NCBI RefSeq assembly: GCF_014077505.1
Contig: NZ_JACGWA010000006.1
Coordinates: forward strand, 62,001 to 126,000
From: Colwellia sp. BRX10-3
Lineage (GTDB): Bacteria; Pseudomonadota; Gammaproteobacteria; Enterobacterales; Alteromonadaceae
Length of the DNA stretch: 64,000 nucleotides
Reading direction: 5' to 3'
The position numbers and the translations under genes are program-made. Position 1 is the stretch's first letter; every line of letters begins with the position of its first letter. The notes below the pieces were generated by a model that saw only the letters and a list, made by a program, of their open reading frames with translations, had not been told where the DNA came from and did no database searches. This document shows positions 52,275-61,852 of this stretch, piece after piece.

Positions 52275-52778
52275 TTAATGCTTATGTACTTCTTTAGGTT
52301 TGTAGTCACGACTAGATGAATGGCTGTGTACTACTTTCCAAAAACCATCAATTTTTCTCAAAAGAAAGGTTTGAAAACCACTTTTGTCGAACTCTTTGCC
52401 ACTTTTGTTCACCTTACCTTTTACACGCGTGTCGGCAATTGCCCATGCAAAGTCTTTGGCTTCACCTTCAAAGTGAATTTCAATTTCACTAAAATCTAGC
52501 TTTAAGTACTCTAATGCATCTTTTTCTGGTTCAACATGGTGCTCAACTAAAGAGTTTAACCCCAAATTTTGACCACCACTCTCAACATATCGAGCACCTT
52601 TAAAATCAAGAAAGTTTTTTCTAAAAGGTGCGCCATCACCATTTTCCCAGCCATATTTAATACTACTGATGATATCAGTGATAGCTTTTCTATCTTCACT
52701 AATATGGTCTTTATCACCATGAGCCATTGACGAAAAACTTATCACTAGTACTAAAATTGCCGTAATATATTTATTCAT
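52275..52778 (-). CDS. Secreted NTF2-like (SnoaL/DUF4440) protein, second of a pair
   Basis: 167 residues with a signal peptide ([18 protein letters not shown]), a cone-shaped NTF2-like fold pattern (from [17 protein letters not shown] to [18 protein letters not shown]), and a His/Lys-rich tail [10 protein letters not shown]. The [11 protein letters not shown] close parallels GKWKIVHIHWS of the neighbour at 52802, so the two are tandem paralogues. It sits in the copper cluster between a cytochrome c and copA and is periplasmic. Its role is unknown; histidines at both ends could bind copper. Confidence 0.78.
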
Positions 52779-52801
52779 TTTTAATCCTATTAATAGTTAA
52801 C

Positions 52802-53287
52802 TTAGTTTGACCAATGGATATGGACAATTTTCCACTTACCTGCTGTTTTTTGAAGCACCATAGTTTCCATGCCCTCACTATTGATGTCTTTGCCTCGAAA
52901 TTGCCCTGTCGATTTACTTCTCGACATAGCGTAAGCAAGATCTCCAATAACTTTGACTTGATATTCTATTAGTTCAGTGTTGATAGCTGCCAAATATTTC
53001 ATGTCAGCAATCATATGATGCTGCGCATATTCATCAGCTGATTTTTCTACACCTCCACCTTCGAAAATCAGTACATCATCTGCTAATAATGATCTAGCTG
53101 TAACCTTGTCGCCTGATTTCAACGCTTGATGAAATTGAGCAATGGCTTTACCCGCTTCGGTTTCTATTACAGAAATTTCGGTCTCAATTTTAGCTACATT
53201 TTTGTCGTTCTTATGAGCGTGTAAGTTAAAGCTCATTGATGCGCTCAACACTAAGGTTGTGATTAATATACTTTCAATTACTTTCAT
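52802..53287 (-). CDS. Secreted NTF2-like (SnoaL/DUF4440) protein, first of a pair
   Basis: 161 residues. A signal peptide (ESILITTLVLSASMSFNLHA) is followed by an NTF2-like domain with AIAQFHQALKSGDKVTARSLLADDVLIFEGGG and the closing AGKWKIVHIHWSN. Proteins of this fold bind small ligands or act as enzymes; no catalytic residues are obvious. It is 32 bases after the cytochrome c gene and 23 bases before its paralogue, so all are probably co-transcribed with cusCBA. Its periplasmic location suggests a role in metal handling, which is unproven. Confidence 0.78.
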   Translation of the reverse strand: MKVIESILITTLVLSASMSFNLHAHKNDKNVAKIETEISVIETEAGKAIAQFHQALKSGDKVTARSLLADDVLIFEGGGVEKSADEYAQHHMIADMKYLAAINTELIEYQVKVIGDLAYAMSRSKSTGQFRGKDINSEGMETMVLQKTAGKWKIVHIHWSN

Positions 53288-53319
53288 ATTTGTCTCTTTA
53301 TAGTTTTTCTCGTTAATAT

Positions 53320-53832
53320 TTATTCGACTGCAGTAAGCACTTGATATTGATCAGGTGTTAAAGTTGGAAGGCGTTTTATAAATGCCACCATCGCCCATAT
53401 ACGTTGATCATCATGTGTTTTACCCCAAGCCGGCATTCCTGAAGCTTTAATGCCATGCTTGATCACCCAGAAATTGTTACGTTCAACTTGTATATCATCG
53501 TTATTATCAGGCACAGTTAAATTAGGTGGTGCGGGATATAAACCTAAGCTCATATCACTCTCGCGCTGTCCAGGCTTTAAATGGCAACTAGCGCACATAA
53601 ATTCGTAGTCAACACCACCAGATAACAATAATTCTGGGTCGGTTAAATCTGGCACTTTAATATTTGCAGCCGCCTTTTTTATCGAATTTTTTCTTGTTTC
53701 TTCTAAAATCCAATATACAAAGTCGCTATGGGGTTCGTCTGCAGCCACATTAACAACGCCTGAATACATAACTGCGGCAGTAGTACCAACGCCTAATACT
53801 GCCAACAATAATATTAATTTAATCATTTTCAT
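53320..53832 (-). CDS. Periplasmic monohaem cytochrome c
   Basis: About 170 residues. There is an N-terminal signal or anchor (MIKLILLLAVLGVGTTAAVMY), one haem-binding motif CASCH in YEFMCASCHLKPG, and the distal ligand Met in ASGMPAWGKT. The closing QRIWAMVAFIKRLPTL is typical of class I c-type domains. I choose the ATG at 53832; the frame to 53868 adds residues before the signal. It lies inside the copper cluster, so it may pass electrons in periplasmic Cu+/Cu2+ chemistry; this is inference. Confidence 0.85.
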   Translation of the reverse strand: MKMIKLILLLAVLGVGTTAAVMYSGVVNVAADEPHSDFVYWILEETRKNSIKKAAANIKVPDLTDPELLLSGGVDYEFMCASCHLKPGQRESDMSLGLYPAPPNLTVPDNNDDIQVERNNFWVIKHGIKASGMPAWGKTHDDQRIWAMVAFIKRLPTLTPDQYQVLTAVE

Positions 53833-53910
53833 GACGGTTCCTTTTGATTGAAAGTCACTGATTTCCAATGTATGTACACATATTTGTAGTCAGCGACCAT
53901 TCAAATTTAA

Positions 53911-54231
53911 TTAATGATTATTGTGATCATCTTTGTTCATGTTTTTTTTATCTACTTTTTTCATTTTGCTGTGGTCCATTTGTTTATCCATTTTACTATG
54001 GTCCATCATGTCTTTTGATTTTTTAGCTTGTTTCATACATTTTTTCATCATCGCGATAGCAACAGGATCCTTCATATCCATCTTGCTATGATCCATTTTA
54101 CTGCAATCTGCTTTTTTAGCTTTTTTTACATGCAAACTTGGGTCGTGTGCTGTTGCTGTCATCGATAATGTAATGGCTGGTATTAATACCAAAGCGATTT
54201 TACTGACTGTTTTCATTAAGTTTTTTTTCAT
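53911..54231 (-). CDS. Secreted His/Met-repeat (MDHSKM) copper-binding protein
   Basis: 106 residues. A signal peptide (about 1-28, ending TATA) is followed by a low-complexity region with four copies of DHSKM (KMDHSKMDMKD, MMDHSKMDKQ, MDHSKMKK) and a DDHNNH tail. Met and His in this pattern bind Cu+ or Ag+ in periplasmic scavengers. Two cysteines (DCSKM and MKKCMKQ) add possible ligands. It lies 89 bases after cusA. It has no named family that I can recognise beyond Met/His-rich metal binders. Confidence 0.8.
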   Translation of the reverse strand: MKKNLMKTVSKIALVLIPAITLSMTATAHDPSLHVKKAKKADCSKMDHSKMDMKDPVAIAMMKKCMKQAKKSKDMMDHSKMDKQMDHSKMKKVDKKNMNKDDHNNH

Positions 54232-54320: not shown

Positions 54321-57300
54321 TCATATCTTGGTTGCTGTAATTTTTATCGATGACGAACGCCATAAATAAAATAATGTCGGTAAAACTAGCAAGGTTAGTA
54401 TCACCGCACTCAACATGCCGCCAACCATAGGGGCTGCAATACGGCTCATCACTTCAGAACCTGTGCCAGTGCCATATAAAATAGGTAATAATCCAACAAT
54501 TATAGCTGCAGCCGTCATCATCACTGGGCGCACACGCATACCCGCGCCATGCAACACGGCTTGAAATAAGTCTTCTTTGGTCGTGGTAATATCTTTTAAG
54601 CTATGTTCATCTAACATCGCTTTATAAGCTTGGTTTAAATACACCAACATAATAACGCCAATTTCTACCGCCACTCCTGCCAGCGCGATAAAACCGACAC
54701 CTACCGCCACAGAGAAGTTAAAACCTTCTAAATACATCAACCAAATACTGCCAACCATAGCTAACGGCAGAGTACCCATAATCATTGCCACTTCAATTAC
54801 ATTTCTAAAGTTAAGGTAAAGTAGTATCACGATAATAAATAAGGTTAATGGCACCACATAAGCTAACTTGGCTTTTGCGCGCTGCATATATTCGTATTGT
54901 CCTGCCCAAGTAATTGAGTAACCCGCGGGTAGCACTAATTGATCAGTGACCACTTTCTGTGCGGCTTCAACATAAGTGCCGACATCAACACCTTCAATAT
55001 CAACAAAAGCCCAACCATTTAAACGGGCATTTTCAGATTTGATACCCGGAGGTCCATCTTCAATATAAATATTGGCAACATCGCCTAAGGCAATACGTTG
55101 GCCATTTGGCGTAACTATCGGTAATAATGATAACTGCTCTGGAGAGTCACGATAGTCTTGTGGGTAACGCACATTGACTGGATAACGCTCTAAACCCTCA
55201 ACGGTTTGAGTAACGTTCATGCCACCAACAGCGGTTGCTACTACTTGTTGAATTTCAGCGATATTCAAACCATAACGAGCCGCTTTCGCGCGCTGAATAT
55301 CCACTTTTATATATCGACCACCCGCTACACGTTCTGAATAAACTGATGCTGTACCTGGTACGACTTTTAATATCACTTCTAACTGTTGACCAATATCTTG
55401 AATAACCGATAAATCAGGCCCCGCCACTTTTATGCCAACTGGGGTTTTTATACCTGTTGCTAGCATATCAATACGGGTTTTTATTGGCATAACCCAAGCA
55501 TTAGTCACCCCAGGGAGTTTCACTAAAGCGTCGAGTTCTTGTTTCAAACTTTCAGGTGTTACACCTTCACGCCATTGATCATGAGGCTTAAACTGAATAA
55601 AGGTTTCTATCATGGTTAAGGGCGCAGGATCCGTTGCGGTTTCAGCACGGCCTACTTTACCAAATACAGTTTTTACTTCTGGCACTGTTTTAATCAGTTT
55701 GTCAGTTTGTTGTAGCAGTTGACGAGCCTGACCAATCGATATACCAGGATATGTTGTTGGCATGTACATCAGATCGCCTTCATCGAGTGGGGGTATAAAC
55801 TCACTACCAATCTTATTAATTGGATATATACCAATACCCAGTACGATTAATGCTGCTAGTAGTGTTATTTTAGGGAAGTTCAATACGGTTTTAAGTGCAG
55901 GCATATAGATAAATGTCAAAAATCTATTGACCGGATTTTTATGCTCCGGCAGTACTTTACCGCGAATAAAATAGCCCATTAATACCGGTACTAAGGTTAT
56001 AGCTAATGCAGCTGATGCTGCCATAGCATAAGTTTTAGTAAATGCTAACGGAGCAAACATACGCCCTTCTTGTGCTTCTAGGGTAAATACTGGTATAAAG
56101 CTTACGGTAATAATTAATAAACTAAAGAATAATGCCGGGCCTACTTCACTGGCTGACTCAGCCACTATTTGCCAGCGATTTTCTTTCGTTAACGGGGTTT
56201 TTTCCATATGCTTATGCATGTTTTCTATCATAACAATAGCACCATCGATCATCGCCCCTATCGCAATGGCAATACCGCCTAACGACATGATATTGGCGTT
56301 AAGACCTTGCAGGTGCATGATAATAAAAGCCGTTAAAATCCCAATAGGTAAACTGATTATTGCGACTAAAGATGAACGGACATGGAATAAGAAAATAATG
56401 CAAACTAAGGCAACCACACCAAATTCTTCCAACAACTTATAAGCCAAGTTATCGACTGCTCGTTCTATCAATGCTGAACGGTCATAAACTGGCACTATTT
56501 CTACGCCATCAGGTAAGCCTTTTTTAAGCTTTTCAAGCTTGGCTTTTACGCCGTTAATCACTTGCTGAGCGTTTTCGCCAAAGCGCATTACAACAATGCC
56601 GCCAACCGTTTCGCCTTCGCCATTGAGTTCTGCAATGCCTCTGCGCATTTGCGGTCCAGTACCAATATTTGCAACATCTTTTAACAGTAACGGGGTACCA
56701 TTTTGGTTTACACCCAGCGGAATGTTTTCAAGATCGTCAACGCCTGTTATATAGCCTGTAGCTCTGACCATATACTCAGCTTCAGCCATTTCAACGACTG
56801 AGGCACCGATTTCCTGATTACCTTGTTTAATGGCAGTTTGAATAAGTGATAGTGGAATACCATAGGCACGTAGTTTTTCTGGATCTACGTTGACTTGATA
56901 TTGTTTAACCATTCCACCCAGTGCAGTAACTTCTGAGACGCCAGGCACAGTTTGTAATTCAAACTTCAAAAACCAGTCTTGTATACTGCGCAGTTGGCTT
57001 AAATCATGTTGGCCTGTTGTATCGGTAAGCGCATATAAATATACCCAACCAACGCCCGTGGCATCAGGACCCAGTTGCGGCCGTGCATCACTGGGTAAGT
57101 TAGGCGCAACTTGGCTTAAATATTCAAGTACCCGAGAACGTGCCCAGTAAAGGTCGGTATCTTCATCGAAAATAACGTAAACATAGGAATCACCAAAGAA
57201 TGAATAACCACGAACGGTCACAGCGCCTGGCACTGATAACATGGCGGTAGTCATCGGATAAGTTACTTGATCTTCAACCACTTGTGGCGCTTGGCCTGGA

Positions 57301-57458
57301 TAGCTTGTTTTAATTATCACTTGCACGTCTGAAAGATCAGGTAGTGCATCAATCGGTGTTTTGCTAACTGAATATAAACCCGCGCCTACTAAAAGCATGG
57401 TTGCTAGCAAGACAAAGAAACGGTTACCAATCGACCATCGAATAATAGCAGTAATCAT
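54321..57458 (-). CDS. cusA: CusA-type Cu(I)/Ag(I) RND efflux pump
   Basis: 1045 residues, 12 transmembrane helices and two large periplasmic loops. The methionines that bind and relay Cu+ in E. coli CusA (M573, M623, M672) are all present, each offset by seven: M566 in YMPTTYPG, M616 in APLTMIETF and M665 in RIDMLATG. The proton-relay Asp is D405 in GAMIDGAIVM. The SEFIPPLDEGD segment is characteristic of heavy-metal RND pumps. It exports monovalent copper or silver from periplasm to outside with CusB and CusC, and starts 17 bases after cusB. Confidence 0.96.
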   Translation of the reverse strand: MITAIIRWSIGNRFFVLLATMLLVGAGLYSVSKTPIDALPDLSDVQVIIKTSYPGQAPQVVEDQVTYPMTTAMLSVPGAVTVRGYSFFGDSYVYVIFDEDTDLYWARSRVLEYLSQVAPNLPSDARPQLGPDATGVGWVYLYALTDTTGQHDLSQLRSIQDWFLKFELQTVPGVSEVTALGGMVKQYQVNVDPEKLRAYGIPLSLIQTAIKQGNQEIGASVVEMAEAEYMVRATGYITGVDDLENIPLGVNQNGTPLLLKDVANIGTGPQMRRGIAELNGEGETVGGIVVMRFGENAQQVINGVKAKLEKLKKGLPDGVEIVPVYDRSALIERAVDNLAYKLLEEFGVVALVCIIFLFHVRSSLVAIISLPIGILTAFIIMHLQGLNANIMSLGGIAIAIGAMIDGAIVMIENMHKHMEKTPLTKENRWQIVAESASEVGPALFFSLLIITVSFIPVFTLEAQEGRMFAPLAFTKTYAMAASAALAITLVPVLMGYFIRGKVLPEHKNPVNRFLTFIYMPALKTVLNFPKITLLAALIVLGIGIYPINKIGSEFIPPLDEGDLMYMPTTYPGISIGQARQLLQQTDKLIKTVPEVKTVFGKVGRAETATDPAPLTMIETFIQFKPHDQWREGVTPESLKQELDALVKLPGVTNAWVMPIKTRIDMLATGIKTPVGIKVAGPDLSVIQDIGQQLEVILKVVPGTASVYSERVAGGRYIKVDIQRAKAARYGLNIAEIQQVVATAVGGMNVTQTVEGLERYPVNVRYPQDYRDSPEQLSLLPIVTPNGQRIALGDVANIYIEDGPPGIKSENARLNGWAFVDIEGVDVGTYVEAAQKVVTDQLVLPAGYSITWAGQYEYMQRAKAKLAYVVPLTLFIIVILLYLNFRNVIEVAMIMGTLPLAMVGSIWLMYLEGFNFSVAVGVGFIALAGVAVEIGVIMLVYLNQAYKAMLDEHSLKDITTTKEDLFQAVLHGAGMRVRPVMMTAAAIIVGLLPILYGTGTGSEVMSRIAAPMVGGMLSAVILTLLVLPTLFYLWRSSSIKITATKI

Positions 57459-57475: not shown

Positions 57476-59296
57476 TTAGTGGTTTGAGTGGTCAACAGGC
57501 GATTCTTCAACAGAAGATTCAACACTTGATTTATCACCATCTAACAATGGCGAAATGTCAGTAATAATGAAATTTCCATCACGTATTTCAAAAGTAAATG
57601 TCACCTCCATGCCTTTGTTGAAACTAGCTAAACTCACGCTTTCATCGGTAATAAAATCTACTGTTGCAGCCGGTCTATTCCATTTTGCTATCGCTGAACG
57701 ACTGATATTAATCATGCCATGGTCAACCATAAGTGAATTTATTGTGCCTGTTACTGTTGCAGAACTTACTTCGTCAACTTGCGGTTTGTCCATTGCCATT
57801 GAAGTGCTTTGATCAGGAATGTGAATGTTAGTGATTATATAATCGGCTTCGGCCGTTTTACTCACTTCAACATGTAAACTTAGTCCTACTTTGAGGAGCG
57901 AAAAGTCGATAGTATCAATGGCAATAAAGTCCATCACCATTTCAGGCCAACTCCATTCAGGAATAGCTTCATGCGAAAGTGATAACATCTTATGTTCTGC
58001 CATTAAACTTTCTACTTTAGCTTGCACCCAAACCGATACGGGTGCTAATTGCTCATCATCTGATTTATTACTATACATGCGTTTAAAATCAGAAGACTTA
58101 CTCGACTCTGAATCCAATAAAAATTGCGCCGAACTCACAACTTTTTCGCCTGCTCTAAGTCCGGTAAGTATTTCAACGCTTTCACTGTCATATCGGCCAA
58201 CAGTTACGGCAATAGACTTAAAGCTGCCCTCACCTAATGCCAGCACAACTCGGTCTTGTTTACCTGTTCTGATCAATGCTTCAGTTGGGATCAGTAGTGC
58301 TTTTTCATCACCTGAAGTATGAATGACTATTTGCGCAAACATATTAGGTTTAAAGGCACCATCTTCATTACTAAAACGTGAACGCACTTTAACCGTGCGA
58401 GTTTTAGCATCAAGCGTTGGGTAGATAAAATCTACTTGTCCTTGCCATGTTTTGCCGGGCAAATAATCTAAAGTCATGGTAACCTCTGTGCCCTTTTTAA
58501 CTTGATTGGCTTGTCTTTCAAATACTTCTGTTTCAAGCCAAACTTCAGACAGGTCGCCAATGGACAATAACGTTGTACCTGGCTTAACAAAAAAACCTTC
58601 TCGTATATTTAAGGTTTCTACAACACCATTTTGCGGCGCATAAAAGGTGATTTTTTGCTGAACTTTCTTAGTTTTAATCAGTTTTTCGATAGCCGAACTG
58701 GGAAGTAGCAACGCCTTTAATCTATTTTCGGCGGCATTGATTAGCTGACGATTATCACGGCTTAATGCCAATAACAATTCTTCTTGAGCATTGACTAACT
58801 CTGGCGAATAAATATCATAAAGGGGGTCATTTTTCTTCACCGTATCACCAACGGCTTTTACATATAGCTTTTCTACCCAACCCTCTACGCGCGGATGTAT
58901 ATGCACGAGTTTTTCTTGATCAAAACTGACATAGCCAACTGTATTTATTTCAAAGTGCAGTGGTTTATATCTTGCTATAACCGTTCTTACTCCTAGGTTA
59001 TTCACTACATCTGGAGAAATACGAATAGTGCCTTCGCCTTCATCAGGTCCCTTACCACCATCATCATAAACAGGCACTAAGTCCATACCCATGGGTGACT
59101 TACCGGCTTTATCTCTTCTATAGTTAGCATCCATGGGTGCAACCCAATAGAGTGGTTTTTCTTCTACTTCGGCAGTCACTGTTTGGTCAGACCCAACTGG
59201 CGCCATAAAAGTATAAGCACCAAATGTCAGTATCGAACCAATCACCATACCGACAATTAATGGCTTTATGGGTTTATTTGTCGTATTTGTACTCAT
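57476..59296 (-). CDS. cusB: CusB adaptor fused to two CusF-like domains
   Basis: 606 residues, against about 407 for E. coli CusB. Order: an N-terminal membrane helix (12-32); a degenerate heavy-metal-binding segment YWVAPMDANYRR...SPMGMDLVPVY (50-77); the adaptor core with lipoyl, alpha-hairpin and barrel parts (about 90-395); and then two CusF-like domains, at about 424-493 and 514-582. The first keeps the ligands H442, W450, M453, M455 of the copper chaperone CusF; the second has R533, R541, A544, V546 at the same places and should not bind copper. An acidic tail ends VDHSNH. It overlaps the cusC stop codon (TAATG). Confidence 0.94.
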   Translation of the reverse strand: MSTNTTNKPIKPLIVGMVIGSILTFGAYTFMAPVGSDQTVTAEVEEKPLYWVAPMDANYRRDKAGKSPMGMDLVPVYDDGGKGPDEGEGTIRISPDVVNNLGVRTVIARYKPLHFEINTVGYVSFDQEKLVHIHPRVEGWVEKLYVKAVGDTVKKNDPLYDIYSPELVNAQEELLLALSRDNRQLINAAENRLKALLLPSSAIEKLIKTKKVQQKITFYAPQNGVVETLNIREGFFVKPGTTLLSIGDLSEVWLETEVFERQANQVKKGTEVTMTLDYLPGKTWQGQVDFIYPTLDAKTRTVKVRSRFSNEDGAFKPNMFAQIVIHTSGDEKALLIPTEALIRTGKQDRVVLALGEGSFKSIAVTVGRYDSESVEILTGLRAGEKVVSSAQFLLDSESSKSSDFKRMYSNKSDDEQLAPVSVWVQAKVESLMAEHKMLSLSHEAIPEWSWPEMVMDFIAIDTIDFSLLKVGLSLHVEVSKTAEADYIITNIHIPDQSTSMAMDKPQVDEVSSATVTGTINSLMVDHGMINISRSAIAKWNRPAATVDFITDESVSLASFNKGMEVTFTFEIRDGNFIITDISPLLDGDKSSVESSVEESPVDHSNH

Positions 59297-60753
59297 TATT
59301 TATTTCCCGGAACAACAGCAGTTAGCACGCTATTGTTTACATTTATGTTGTTTAGTGTGGTTGCAGTATTGAGACTGCCGATAAAAAGATAATTAAGTTC
59401 TAAACGTATTTTTTGCTCTTCAACATTGAGTGTTAACTCGTCTATTTCGATATTTAGTACGGCAATACGTGAACGAACGACTTCAGAGAAATCGCCAACG
59501 TCGTTGGTATAGGCCGATAAAGAAGCTTCAGCTTGGTCATGAATTTGCGGCAGTAATCTTGTTGTATAAAGGTTTTGTCGCTCTTTTAAACGCAGTAATC
59601 TACCTTTTGCACTTGAGTAAGCGCCTAGTAATTCCCTGAGTAATAAAATCTTTTCTGTTTTCACCGCTTCTGTTGCAGATACAGCTGATTTAAGCTCATT
59701 ATCTTGCCTATTATCGGTAAACAGTGGCACATCGAAAGTTACACCGACAGAGAACAAGTCTGCTCTACTGCTTCCCATAGCATCATCGCTGCGATAGCCA
59801 TAACTTGCGTTTACGCCCCATTCAGGCTTGTATTTTTGCTGCGCTAAATTGATACCTGTTTTAGTCGCATGTATTTTTTTTTCTATCGCCAAAACCGCAG
59901 GATGATTAGCAAAGTACTGAACCAATGCCATTGGCTTAAGCCAAGTTTTCTTGGCCACTACATCACCATTAAGTAAGTCAATTTCTGGAAGTTGATGAGT
60001 AAGTTCTATGTTATGCAGAGCAAAGTCAGATGCTAATATTGCTTCTTCTACTGAGCTATTTTCGTTAGAAAATTTAGTTAACCATTGAGAAAGCATGCCT
60101 TCATAGCGATTTTGCTGTTGTGCCAATAGGCTTAACCTATCTTCTAAACGGGTTAATTCCAGTTGTGCTCGCACAATATCTTGCTGACGAGTTTTACCTA
60201 ATGCTGATGAATAGCTTACTGTTGCTACATCGACTAACTGCACAAATAGCGACCTGTTCTTTTCAATTAAAGCAATACTTTGCTGAACTCGGTAGGCGTC
60301 TAACCATAAACTGCCTACCGTAACCGCAACTTTTGATTCACGGTCTTTTCTTTGAAAGGGAAACCCCTCGCTTTGAATTTTTAGCTGCTGGCTTTTAATA
60401 TCTAAGCTATCTCCGCGAGGAAACATTTGTGAAATACCTACTTTAGCCTGCGTCATGCCTTCTTGACCAAAGTCAAAGCCATTTAACGGTAGATTTGCCA
60501 AACCAATTGACACCTTAGGGTTGGGTAATGTGTTTACTGCATTACTCATCGACTCAATTGCTCTTTGTTTATGCAAATTTCCGGTTAACCAAGGATCATT
60601 TTTTTGAGCAGCTTTAATCGCCTTCTCGAAAGATAAAGCTTTGATGTTATTCTTCGCTGGCAATTGTGCAGCACTAACATAAAAAACAGAAATAGCTAAA
60701 ATTCCAGCACCAAACTTGATATGAAATTTACTATTATCGTTTTGTTTATTCAT
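59296..60753 (-). CDS. cusC: CusC-like outer-membrane efflux protein (TolC family)
   Basis: 485 residues with an N-terminal signal (GAGILAISVFYVSAAQ) and two TolC-type repeats of long helices. Landmarks are LSFEKAIKAAQKNDPWLTG, NTLPNPKVSIGLANLPL and the C-terminal half with WGVNASYGYRSDD and GVTFDVPLF. Unlike E. coli CusC, there is no lipobox Cys behind the signal. It is the outer-membrane exit channel for the CusCBA pump. Its ATG overlaps the stop of the DUF411 gene and its own stop overlaps the cusB ATG, both as TAATG. Confidence 0.9.
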   Translation of the reverse strand: MNKQNDNSKFHIKFGAGILAISVFYVSAAQLPAKNNIKALSFEKAIKAAQKNDPWLTGNLHKQRAIESMSNAVNTLPNPKVSIGLANLPLNGFDFGQEGMTQAKVGISQMFPRGDSLDIKSQQLKIQSEGFPFQRKDRESKVAVTVGSLWLDAYRVQQSIALIEKNRSLFVQLVDVATVSYSSALGKTRQQDIVRAQLELTRLEDRLSLLAQQQNRYEGMLSQWLTKFSNENSSVEEAILASDFALHNIELTHQLPEIDLLNGDVVAKKTWLKPMALVQYFANHPAVLAIEKKIHATKTGINLAQQKYKPEWGVNASYGYRSDDAMGSSRADLFSVGVTFDVPLFTDNRQDNELKSAVSATEAVKTEKILLLRELLGAYSSAKGRLLRLKERQNLYTTRLLPQIHDQAEASLSAYTNDVGDFSEVVRSRIAVLNIEIDELTLNVEEQKIRLELNYLFIGSLNTATTLNNINVNNSVLTAVVPGNK

Positions 60754-61426: not shown

Positions 61427-61852
61427 TTAGCTTAATATTGGAGGACGATATAGTGAGGTCAGTTTCTGGCTTAGCGCCAAACGAGAATGGGAAAGTATTT
61501 TAGCTGAATTATCAAGGATTGGGCTATTACTTACATGCTTGATTAACGCAGCAATACTTGAACAACCACCGGCAAAACAGTTACATATTTTATTACAACA
61601 CTCTTCAGTTGCATCAGTTGAGTCAGTTAAACTATCATCAGATTCGCTGGCCATATTATGGTTACTGTGATCCATCATGGACATATTTTGTGACAGTGAT
61701 TGTACTTCTACTTGGCTACTCATACTCTTCATACCACTCATTCCAGCCATACCCATCATGTGGTAAGACATAATAGTAGACGCCATTGCTTGGCCCACGA
61801 AGGACAAACATATAAGCAATACCATTATTGTTTTAGAGTAGTTTAAAGTCAC
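61427..61852 (-). CDS. CopL-like Met/Cys-rich secreted protein
   Basis: 141 residues with a signal peptide (MVLLICLSFVGQAMA), a Met-rich stretch (YHMMGMAGMSGMKSM), then MSMMDHSNHNM, a cysteine cluster EECCNKICNCFAGGC, and the close SLYRPPI. Signal, Met/His patch, CC-x-C-x-C cluster and terminal (L)-x-RPP resemble CopL-type proteins of copper loci, for which a regulatory or metal-binding role has been proposed. It lies upstream of the DUF411 gene with a 149-base gap and may have its own promoter. Assignment is by pattern, not by search. Confidence 0.6.
   Translation of the reverse strand: MTLNYSKTIMVLLICLSFVGQAMASTIMSYHMMGMAGMSGMKSMSSQVEVQSLSQNMSMMDHSNHNMASESDDSLTDSTDATEECCNKICNCFAGGCSSIAALIKHVSNSPILDNSAKILSHSRLALSQKLTSLYRPPILS

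What the first reader, a model, noticed from the sequence alone, without database searches (positions are those of the whole stretch)
57476..59296. CusB fused to two CusF-like domains, one intact and one with all copper ligands lost
Classical CusCBA uses a separate periplasmic chaperone, CusF, to hand Cu+ to CusB. Here two CusF-like domains are fused to the C-terminus of CusB. The first keeps H442, W450, M453 and M455, equal to the E. coli CusF ligands H36, W44, M47 and M49. The second has R533, R541, A544 and V546 at the same register (offset of 91 residues). I infer a tethered chaperone with one dead copy that may be structural, may regulate the pump, or may bind something else.
Basis: partly seen in the sequence, partly recalled or inferred. 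Interest (0 to 1): 0.72.

Follow-up and report, generated by a model that had tools for sequence, protein, structure and literature searches.

The report
Copper-pump adaptor with Arg-pair CusF domain
A marine bacterium's copper-export adaptor carries two built-in copies of a copper chaperone; the second has swapped two of its usual copper-binding residues for a strictly kept pair of arginines, and some relatives keep that odd copy after losing the copper-binding one, so it looks like a re-purposed part rather than a dead one.

Summary

"Dead copy" is not supported. In 91 distinct proteins (window included) the H36 position is always R, and the W44 position R in 89 and K in 2. The type is consistent with one lineage, is under purifying selection, and is last in every tandem seen. 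In 28 of the 91 it is the only CusF-like domain; in 8 of 8 such genomes rechecked it is the only CusF match over the cut-off. Wherever readable, the pumps keep the Cu+ methionines.

"All copper ligands lost" holds for the canonical site only: M523-x-x-H526-x-M528 and M500/M502 could still bind Cu+.

Best reading, inferred: a CusF-derived docking cap beside a tethered Cu+ catcher. Fused CusF itself is known (SilB); the Arg-pair subfamily is a new variant, partner unknown.

The parts
57476..59296 (-). CusB-type periplasmic adaptor, 606 aa, with C-terminal CusF-type tandem
   Evidence: ORF; PRK09783 CusB 253 bits (under its own 390 cut-off), HlyD_D23 285 bits; PDB CusB 3ne5_B E 4e-63
59069..59149 (-). 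HMBD (residues 50-76) with M55, M69, M71 = CusB N-terminal Met triad
   Evidence: PF19335; Met triad MMM in 63/63 Cu+RR and 28/28 RR-only proteins
57821..58033 (-). CusF domain 1 (residues 422-492), canonical Cu+ ligands H442, W450, M453, M455
   Evidence: PF11604 67.6 bits; residues read
57548..57760 (-). CusF-type domain 2 (residues 513-583), Arg-pair ('RR') subfamily: R533, R541 at H36/W44; A544, V546 at M47/M49
57713..57730 (-). M523-x-x-H526-x-M528 in the beta1-beta2 turn of domain 2: possible alternative Cu+ site
   Evidence: residues; motif survey: 27/63 RR of tandem, 20/28 RR alone, 52/63 D1, 1/36 stand-alone CusF
57986..58003 (-). M432-x-x-H435-x-M437 in the same turn of domain 1
57791..57799 (-). 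M500-A-M502 in the linker between the two domains
   Evidence: linker read and counted; positions
57479..57493 (-). C-terminal tail D-H-S-N-H; His near the end in most Cu+RR proteins
   Evidence: alignment A1; H in the last 8 residues after the domain in 54/63 Cu+RR and 12/28 RR-only
54321..57458 (-). CusA-type RND pump with Met triad M566, M616, M665 (= E. coli M573, M623, M672; E. coli numbers recalled)
   Evidence: TIGR00914 1269 bits; alignment to 3t51_A
59296..60753 (-). TolC/CusC-type outer membrane factor
   Evidence: PF02321
60753..61277 (-). DUF411 protein at the head of the operon
   Evidence: PF04214; same order DUF411-TolC-adaptor-pump on two Alteromonas and one Salinimonas plasmids

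Best explanation
The protein is a CusB adaptor that carries its own Cu+ chaperone. Domain 1 (canonical CusF ligands) is a tethered Cu+ catcher that hands Cu+ to the CusB N-terminal Met triad and so to CusA; this step is inferred from published CusF-CusB chemistry and intact ligands. Domain 2 belongs to a conserved CusF-derived subfamily in which an Arg pair replaces the His and Trp of the metal site; this is shown. I infer that it no longer works as a canonical Cu+ chaperone and that its Arg-bearing pole is a metal-independent docking or capping surface. It would hold the C-terminal arm, and the acidic, Met-containing Cu+ catcher next to it (domain 1, or a Met-rich linker in many proteins without domain 1), against a partner in the pump or adaptor. 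What the Arg pair touches is not shown.
For: Fold and register. Arg pair kept over 63 tandem and 28 lone distinct domains; in tandem domains also K538 63, W539 62, T545 63, D547 60, F548 63, and F-T-F-E 62/60/63/59 of 63; looser in lone domains (K 20, T545 17, E 22 of 28). Consistent with one lineage when ligand columns are masked: SH-aLRT 100 on the branch of 93 rows that holds all 91 RR, one clade not rejected, p-AU 0.525. Kept without domain 1: 28 of 91 RR proteins; on the core tree the RR-only label needs 13 changes, at least 8 forced by well-supported branches; Cu-type-domain presence needs 14 changes against 8 for RR. RR is the only CusF match over cut-off in 8 of 8 RR-only genomes rechecked. 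The pump is still Cu+-type: CusA Met triad in 42 of 42 readable Cu+RR loci (of 63) and 20 of 20 readable RR-only loci (of 28); CusB Met triad 63/63 and 28/28. RR is last in all 63 tandems and in three plasmid proteins, one of them Cu+Cu+RR. Net charge of the former metal loop: median 0 (tandem RR) and +1 (lone RR) against -4 in domain 1 and -2 in fused Cu-alone domains. MxM in the linker before RR: 19/28 RR-only, 12/63 Cu+RR. Median dN/dS of tandem RR 0.148.
Against: No partner was identified, and no coordinates were available to place the Arg side chains. The loop is only neutral to slightly positive and the whole RR domain is acidic (median net -5), so a strongly basic docking patch is not shown. 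The full-length model is poor (pTM 0.41) and the two-domain model has pTM 0.42, so domain placement is unknown. RR evolves faster than domain 1 (dN/dS 0.148 against 0.071; dN lower in RR in only 22 of 97 pairs). RR was also lost or never gained in several lineages inside the clade (the no-RR label needs 8 changes). In 4 of 13 surveyed genomes with an RR-only adaptor a Cu+RR adaptor is present as well. Two rows nested in the RR clade carry HMMM and HKMM. The MxxHxM turn leaves room for metal binding in domain 2.
Confidence: 0.45

Rival explanations
1. Domain 2 is a second Cu+ site of a different kind: it binds Cu+ away from the old site through M523-x-x-H526-x-M528 (two Met and one His), with the MxM linker as a stepping stone.
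For: The motif is in 27/63 RR domains of tandem proteins and 20/28 RR-only, also in 52/63 D1, 11/72 fused Cu-alone domains, but only 1/36 stand-alone CusF. MxM in the linker next to RR in 19/28 RR-only.
Against: 36 of 63 RR domains of tandem proteins lack the motif although their Arg pair is kept, so it cannot be what the Arg pair is for. The motif is more common in domain 1.
Confidence: 0.2
2. Structural salt bridge: the Arg pair replaces the metal as an internal tie that keeps the barrel folded, and the domain is only a spacer that sets the length of the C-terminal arm.
For: E570 of the F-T-F-E strand is largely conserved with the Arg pair (59/63 and 22/28); both barrels are predicted with high confidence.
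Against: Apo CusF is folded without metal (1zeq is titled an apo structure), so no tie is needed. A mere spacer would not be expected to keep the Arg pair and W539 so strictly, also after loss of domain 1. Geometry was not testable.
Confidence: 0.15
3. Dead copy on its way out: the second domain is a decaying duplicate of domain 1.
For: Canonical ligands are lost; dN/dS is about twice that of domain 1; the no-RR label needs 8 changes on the core tree.
Against: Strictly kept Arg pair and other columns over 91 distinct domains, consistent with one lineage, dN/dS far below 1, retention where the Cu-type copy is gone.
Confidence: 0.05
4. The Arg pair binds a periplasmic anion or another non-metal ligand, making domain 2 a sensor that regulates the pump.
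Against: Those fold matches are general to OB barrels; no ligand or co-occurring gene pointing to one was found, and none was systematically sought.
Confidence: 0.1

Closest known systems
SilB of Cupriavidus metallidurans CH34 (CusB-type adaptor with a C-terminal CusF-like domain, PDB 2l55)
   Different: One such domain is described, as metal-binding; the window has a second, Arg-pair domain
E. coli CusF (PDB 2qcp, 2vb2, 1zeq) and SilF (8bwv)
   Same: Fold of window domain 2 and profile of both domains; ligands of domain 1
   Different: Separate protein; domain 2 lacks H36, W44, M47, M49
E. coli CusB and CusA (3ne5, 3t51)
   Same: Core, N-terminal Met triad, pump Met triad
   Different: The E. 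coli CusB chain (407-413 residues) ends after the core; no fused chaperone
   Same: Tandem whose second domain lost M47 (HWGM, HWGL, HWGQ, HWGI, YWGM)
   Different: Keeps His (Tyr once) and Trp, forms its own clade, no Arg pair

Membership tests
CusB adaptor (HME-RND) | Barrel-sandwich/HlyD core similar to CusB | tested here: met
   HlyD_D23 285 bits; 3ne5_B E 4e-63. NCBIfam CusB model PRK09783 253 bits is under its own 390 cut-off
CusB adaptor (HME-RND) | N-terminal three-Met Cu+ site | tested here: met
   M55, M69, M71
CusA-type Cu+/Ag+ pump next door | Periplasmic Met triad | tested here: met
   M566, M616, M665 aligned to E. coli CusA
CusF chaperone, domain 1 | CusF profile and HWMM ligands | tested here: met
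   67.6 bits; H442, W450, M453, M455. Structural rows fell on domain 2, so domain 1's fold rests on the profile and the shared predicted strands
CusF chaperone, domain 2 | CusF fold/profile | tested here: met
CusF chaperone, domain 2 | His, Trp/Met, Met, Met ligand set (HWMM or HMMM) | tested here: not met
   R533, R541, A544, V546; Arg pair in all genus relatives. Domain 2 is CusF-derived but not a CusF chaperone by ligands
CusF chaperone, domain 2 | Cu+/Ag+ binding | not testable with these tools
   needs purified domain; alternative MxxHxM turn present

The most novel reading that the evidence does not exclude
The Arg-pair domain is a metal-mimic pseudochaperone. Its guanidinium groups sit where Cu+ sat, so the domain docks permanently, as metal-loaded CusF does transiently, on the adaptor or pump. 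This keeps the pump in its engaged state and presents the neighbouring Cu+ catcher (CusF domain or MxM linker) without needing metal to trigger docking.
Probability: 0.15. Interest if true: 0.75.

Novelty: new variant of a known kind. Interest (0 to 1): 0.5.

Why it matters
In the passages I read, CusF is treated as a Cu+/Ag+ chaperone (PMC6769254, suspects another role in species without the RND pump). A CusF-derived domain that keeps the fold, trades two ligands for a strictly kept Arg pair, and in some lineages outlasts the metal-binding copy would separate a docking role of CusF from its metal-carrying role. It offers a natural separation-of-function variant for asking how CusF-type domains engage CusB/CusA. 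It also points to a modular adaptor C-terminus (core, Cu+ catcher, Arg-pair cap), seen mainly in marine Alteromonadales and on some of their plasmids.

Tried and rejected
Substrate switch: not supported, since the CusA Met triad is kept in every readable RR-only locus (20 of 20; 8 of the 28 loci did not reach it).

Sequence error: rejected by relatives.

A CopA-docking role through the CusF electropositive residues K23, K30, K31, H35, R50 named in PMC5552934: by the +497 register these are N520, G527, M528, S532, D547 in domain 2, so that patch is not conserved. This does not exclude another docking surface.

One search shows the loop neutral to +1 and the whole domain acidic, so I now say Arg-bearing and lowered the docking odds from 0.5 to 0.45.

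Order of loss (Arg first, Met later): the three RRMM domains keep both Met, but they nest inside the RR clade rather than at its base, so the order cannot be told.

Met-rich linker as a full replacement of domain 1: my first count (MxM 18/28 against 0/63) compared unlike linkers. With matched boundaries the linker just before RR has MxM in 19/28 RR-only and 12/63 Cu+RR, and 10/27 in the tandem proteins whose RR carries the turn motif, so it is enrichment, not an exclusive replacement.

Full-length model: pTM 0.41 with low-confidence linkers; not used. No coordinates were found in the Python box, so no geometry of the Arg pair.

OB-fold matches to SSB/PriB are taken as a general fold likeness only.

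Literature: in six searches of the held library and the passages read, I saw no mention of a tandem CusF fused to CusB or of an Arg-pair CusF. Most hits were seen as listings only. Bersch 2011 (cited) and Kim 2010 (cited) were not read.

Full report
WHAT IS THERE. The reported frame is real: window 57476-59296, minus strand, 606 aa, no internal stop. It is a CusB-type adaptor: HlyD_D23 285 bits, HMBD at residues 50-76, best solved relative E. coli CusB 3ne5_B, E 4e-63. After the core come two CusF_Ec domains, residues 422-492 and 513-583, scoring 67.6 and 63.3 bits over a 27-bit cut-off; no other CusF in the genome passes the cut-off. In operon order come a DUF411 protein, a TolC-type outer membrane factor, this adaptor and a CusA-type pump. 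Nearby are a CopA-type ATPase, two SnoaL/DUF4440-type proteins, a cytochrome c and a response regulator, and a frame with a HisKA match just under its cut-off (26.3 against 26.9 bits). The pump keeps the three methionines M566, M616, M665 that align with E. coli M573, M623, M672 (the E. coli numbers are recalled and were matched by counting in the alignment).

IS IT DEAD. I collected CusF-bearing proteins from 17 genomes of the genus, 148 of the order, 369 of the class, the 80 of 445 relatives kept by the contig search, and regions of up to 18 kb around hits. All 54 order genomes with a match were read. In the class survey the short frames outside the 30 loci and outside the fetched regions, and two long frames (in G404 and G472), were not read. 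Of 306 open frames with CusF domains in 292 loci, 231 are distinct by domain sequence: 195 fused to a CusB-length core and 36 short. Fused architectures: Cu alone 72, Cu+RR 63, RR alone 28, HMMM alone 9, Cu+Cu 7, Cu+HWG-type 10, Cu+Cu+Cu 1, HMMM+HMMM 1, four odd singles. 'RR' means R or K at both the H36 and W44 positions. The 36 short proteins are HMMM (19) or HWMM (17); none is RR. RR domains were found in 28 of the numbered genomes: 17 of 17 of the genus, 10 of 148 order genomes (54 with any CusF) and, among what was read, 4 of 369 class genomes. Named relatives with RR are mainly Colwellia, Thalassotalea, Pseudoalteromonas and other Alteromonadales, with a few Oceanospirillales and one Methylophaga record.

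The RR domain is conserved in its own way. Position 36 is R in 63/63 and 28/28; position 44 is R in 62/63 and 27/28, K in the other two. In the 63 tandem RR domains K538 is 63, W539 62, T545 63, D547 60, F548 63, and F-T-F-E is F 62, T 60, F 63, E 59. In the 28 lone RR domains W is 28, F548 28 and F-T-F-E is 28/27/28/22, but K is 20 and T545 17, so those two are less strict. Median dN/dS, over the 97 of 1953 tandem pairs that met the distance limits in all three parts, is 0.042 for the core, 0.071 for D1 and 0.148 for RR: RR evolves faster than D1 but far below neutrality. With the four ligand columns masked, a quick tree of 314 rows and 77 columns puts all 91 RR rows on a branch of SH-aLRT 100 that also holds two non-RR rows (L169 HMMM, L283 HKMM); one clade is not rejected, p-AU 0.525.

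RETENTION WITHOUT THE COPPER DOMAIN. On a careful tree of 108 adaptor cores (five as outgroup), RR-only needs 13 changes (at least 8 forced by well-supported branches) and no-RR needs 8 (at least 5); presence of a Cu-type domain (HWMM or HMMM) needs 14 changes, presence of RR 8. Changes do not tell gain from loss, and transfer or conversion could add to them. Of 13 numbered genomes with an RR-only adaptor, 4 also have a Cu+RR adaptor and 9 have only RR. Eight of those nine were rechecked at E up to 1, and in 8 of 8 the RR domain is the only CusF match over the cut-off; the other matches are at most 14.2 bits. The ninth, G015, is 66% complete. In RR-only systems the CusB N-terminal Met triad is kept in 28/28 and the CusA triad in 20/20 readable loci, 8 not readable. 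So these still look like Cu+/Ag+ pumps, and the domain that stayed is the one without canonical ligands.

WHAT ELSE COULD BIND COPPER. Two features qualify 'all copper ligands lost'. First, the beta1-beta2 turn of both window domains has M-x-x-H-x-M (432/435/437 and 523/526/528). A motif of this kind is in 52/63 D1, 27/63 RR of tandem proteins, 20/28 RR alone, 11/72 fused Cu-alone domains and 1/36 short CusF. It is an enrichment of fused domains in related proteins and has not been tested for binding. Second, the linker before the RR domain is often Met-rich: MxM in 19/28 RR-only (6.0 expected by within-segment shuffles) and 12/63 Cu+RR (6.1), including the window's M500-A-M502. Some RR-only linkers read M-D-M-D-M repeats. 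Most Cu+RR proteins also have His in the last residues (54/63), in the window D-H-S-N-H.

MECHANISM. Shown: fold, register, conservation, retention, intact Met sites in CusB and CusA. From published work (PMC6235853, abstract and introduction read): CusF forms a complex with CusB, passes Cu+ to its Met site, and the active CusB conformer binds and activates CusA. PMC10656224 (passages) suggests that metal binding in SilF may stabilise a docking site. Inferred: domain 1 does the catching and passing; domain 2 supplies a docking or capping surface that no longer depends on metal. The former metal loop has median net charge 0 or +1 in RR against -4 in D1 and -2 in fused Cu-alone domains, though the RR domain as a whole stays acidic at -5. 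I put 0.45 on a docking/cap module, 0.2 on an alternative Cu+ site, 0.15 on a structural tie, 0.1 on anion sensing and 0.05 on a decaying copy.

KNOWN AND NEW. A CusF-like domain at the C-terminus of a CusB-type adaptor is known from SilB of C. metallidurans (review passages PMC4446572; PDB 2l55). C. metallidurans CusF is reported to lack the E. coli site (PMC10304878, passages), and HWMM and HMMM are the motifs used in an earlier survey (Kim 2010, as told in PMC5552934, passages). Passages of PMC8277102 (less than half of its text is held), PMC8478169, PMC6769254 and PMC7463520 do not describe an Arg-type domain. Six searches of the held library showed no description; key subscription papers were not read. 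Longer chains also exist: Cu+Cu+RR on a Salinimonas plasmid, three Cu domains on an Alteromonas plasmid, and four CusF domains in Leisingera and Roseibium plasmid adaptors.

VERDICT. Observation confirmed; tethered chaperone supported by sequence; dead copy not supported. The find is a conserved Arg-pair variant of a known fused-chaperone architecture, with unknown partner.

Noticed in passing
window 57713-57730 and 57986-58003: M-x-x-H-x-M in the beta1-beta2 turn of both CusF domains, found in 52/63 D1 of Cu+RR proteins but 1 of 36 stand-alone CusF: a possible second Cu+ site.
   Followed up: partly
L130, L208, L210, L118, L124, L140, L127, L138, L136, L220; L297, L298: Adaptors with Cu + HWG-type second domain (M47 to G): a second, separate case of a last CusF domain with altered ligands; L297 and L298 are Vibrio plasmids.
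   Followed up: partly
L299 and L300 (Leisingera, Roseibium plasmids): CusB-type adaptors with four C-terminal CusF domains: HWMS or HWMT, HWMM, HMMM, HMMM.
   Followed up: no
L058 7189-7992: Linker between D1 and RR expanded into a repeat with seven copies of M-D-H-S-Q-H-Q-M in a Thalassomonas adaptor.
   Followed up: no
L014, L017, L018, L031: RR-only adaptors in which the place of D1 holds alternating Met and acidic residues of varying length (long M-D-M-D-M in L014, L017, L031; short M-E-M-D-M in L018).
   Followed up: partly
window 53911-54231 and 61427-61852: Small Met/His-rich proteins flanking the pump operon (M-D-H-S-K-M repeats; M-x-G-M runs), without a Pfam match over cut-off; possible periplasmic copper sponges.
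   Followed up: no
L169, L283: Single CusF domains with HMMM and HKMM that nest inside the RR clade, perhaps a return of ligands or a long-branch effect.
   Followed up: no
window 52275-53868: Two neighbouring SnoaL/DUF4440-type proteins and a cytochrome c between the pump and a CopA-type ATPase.
   Followed up: no
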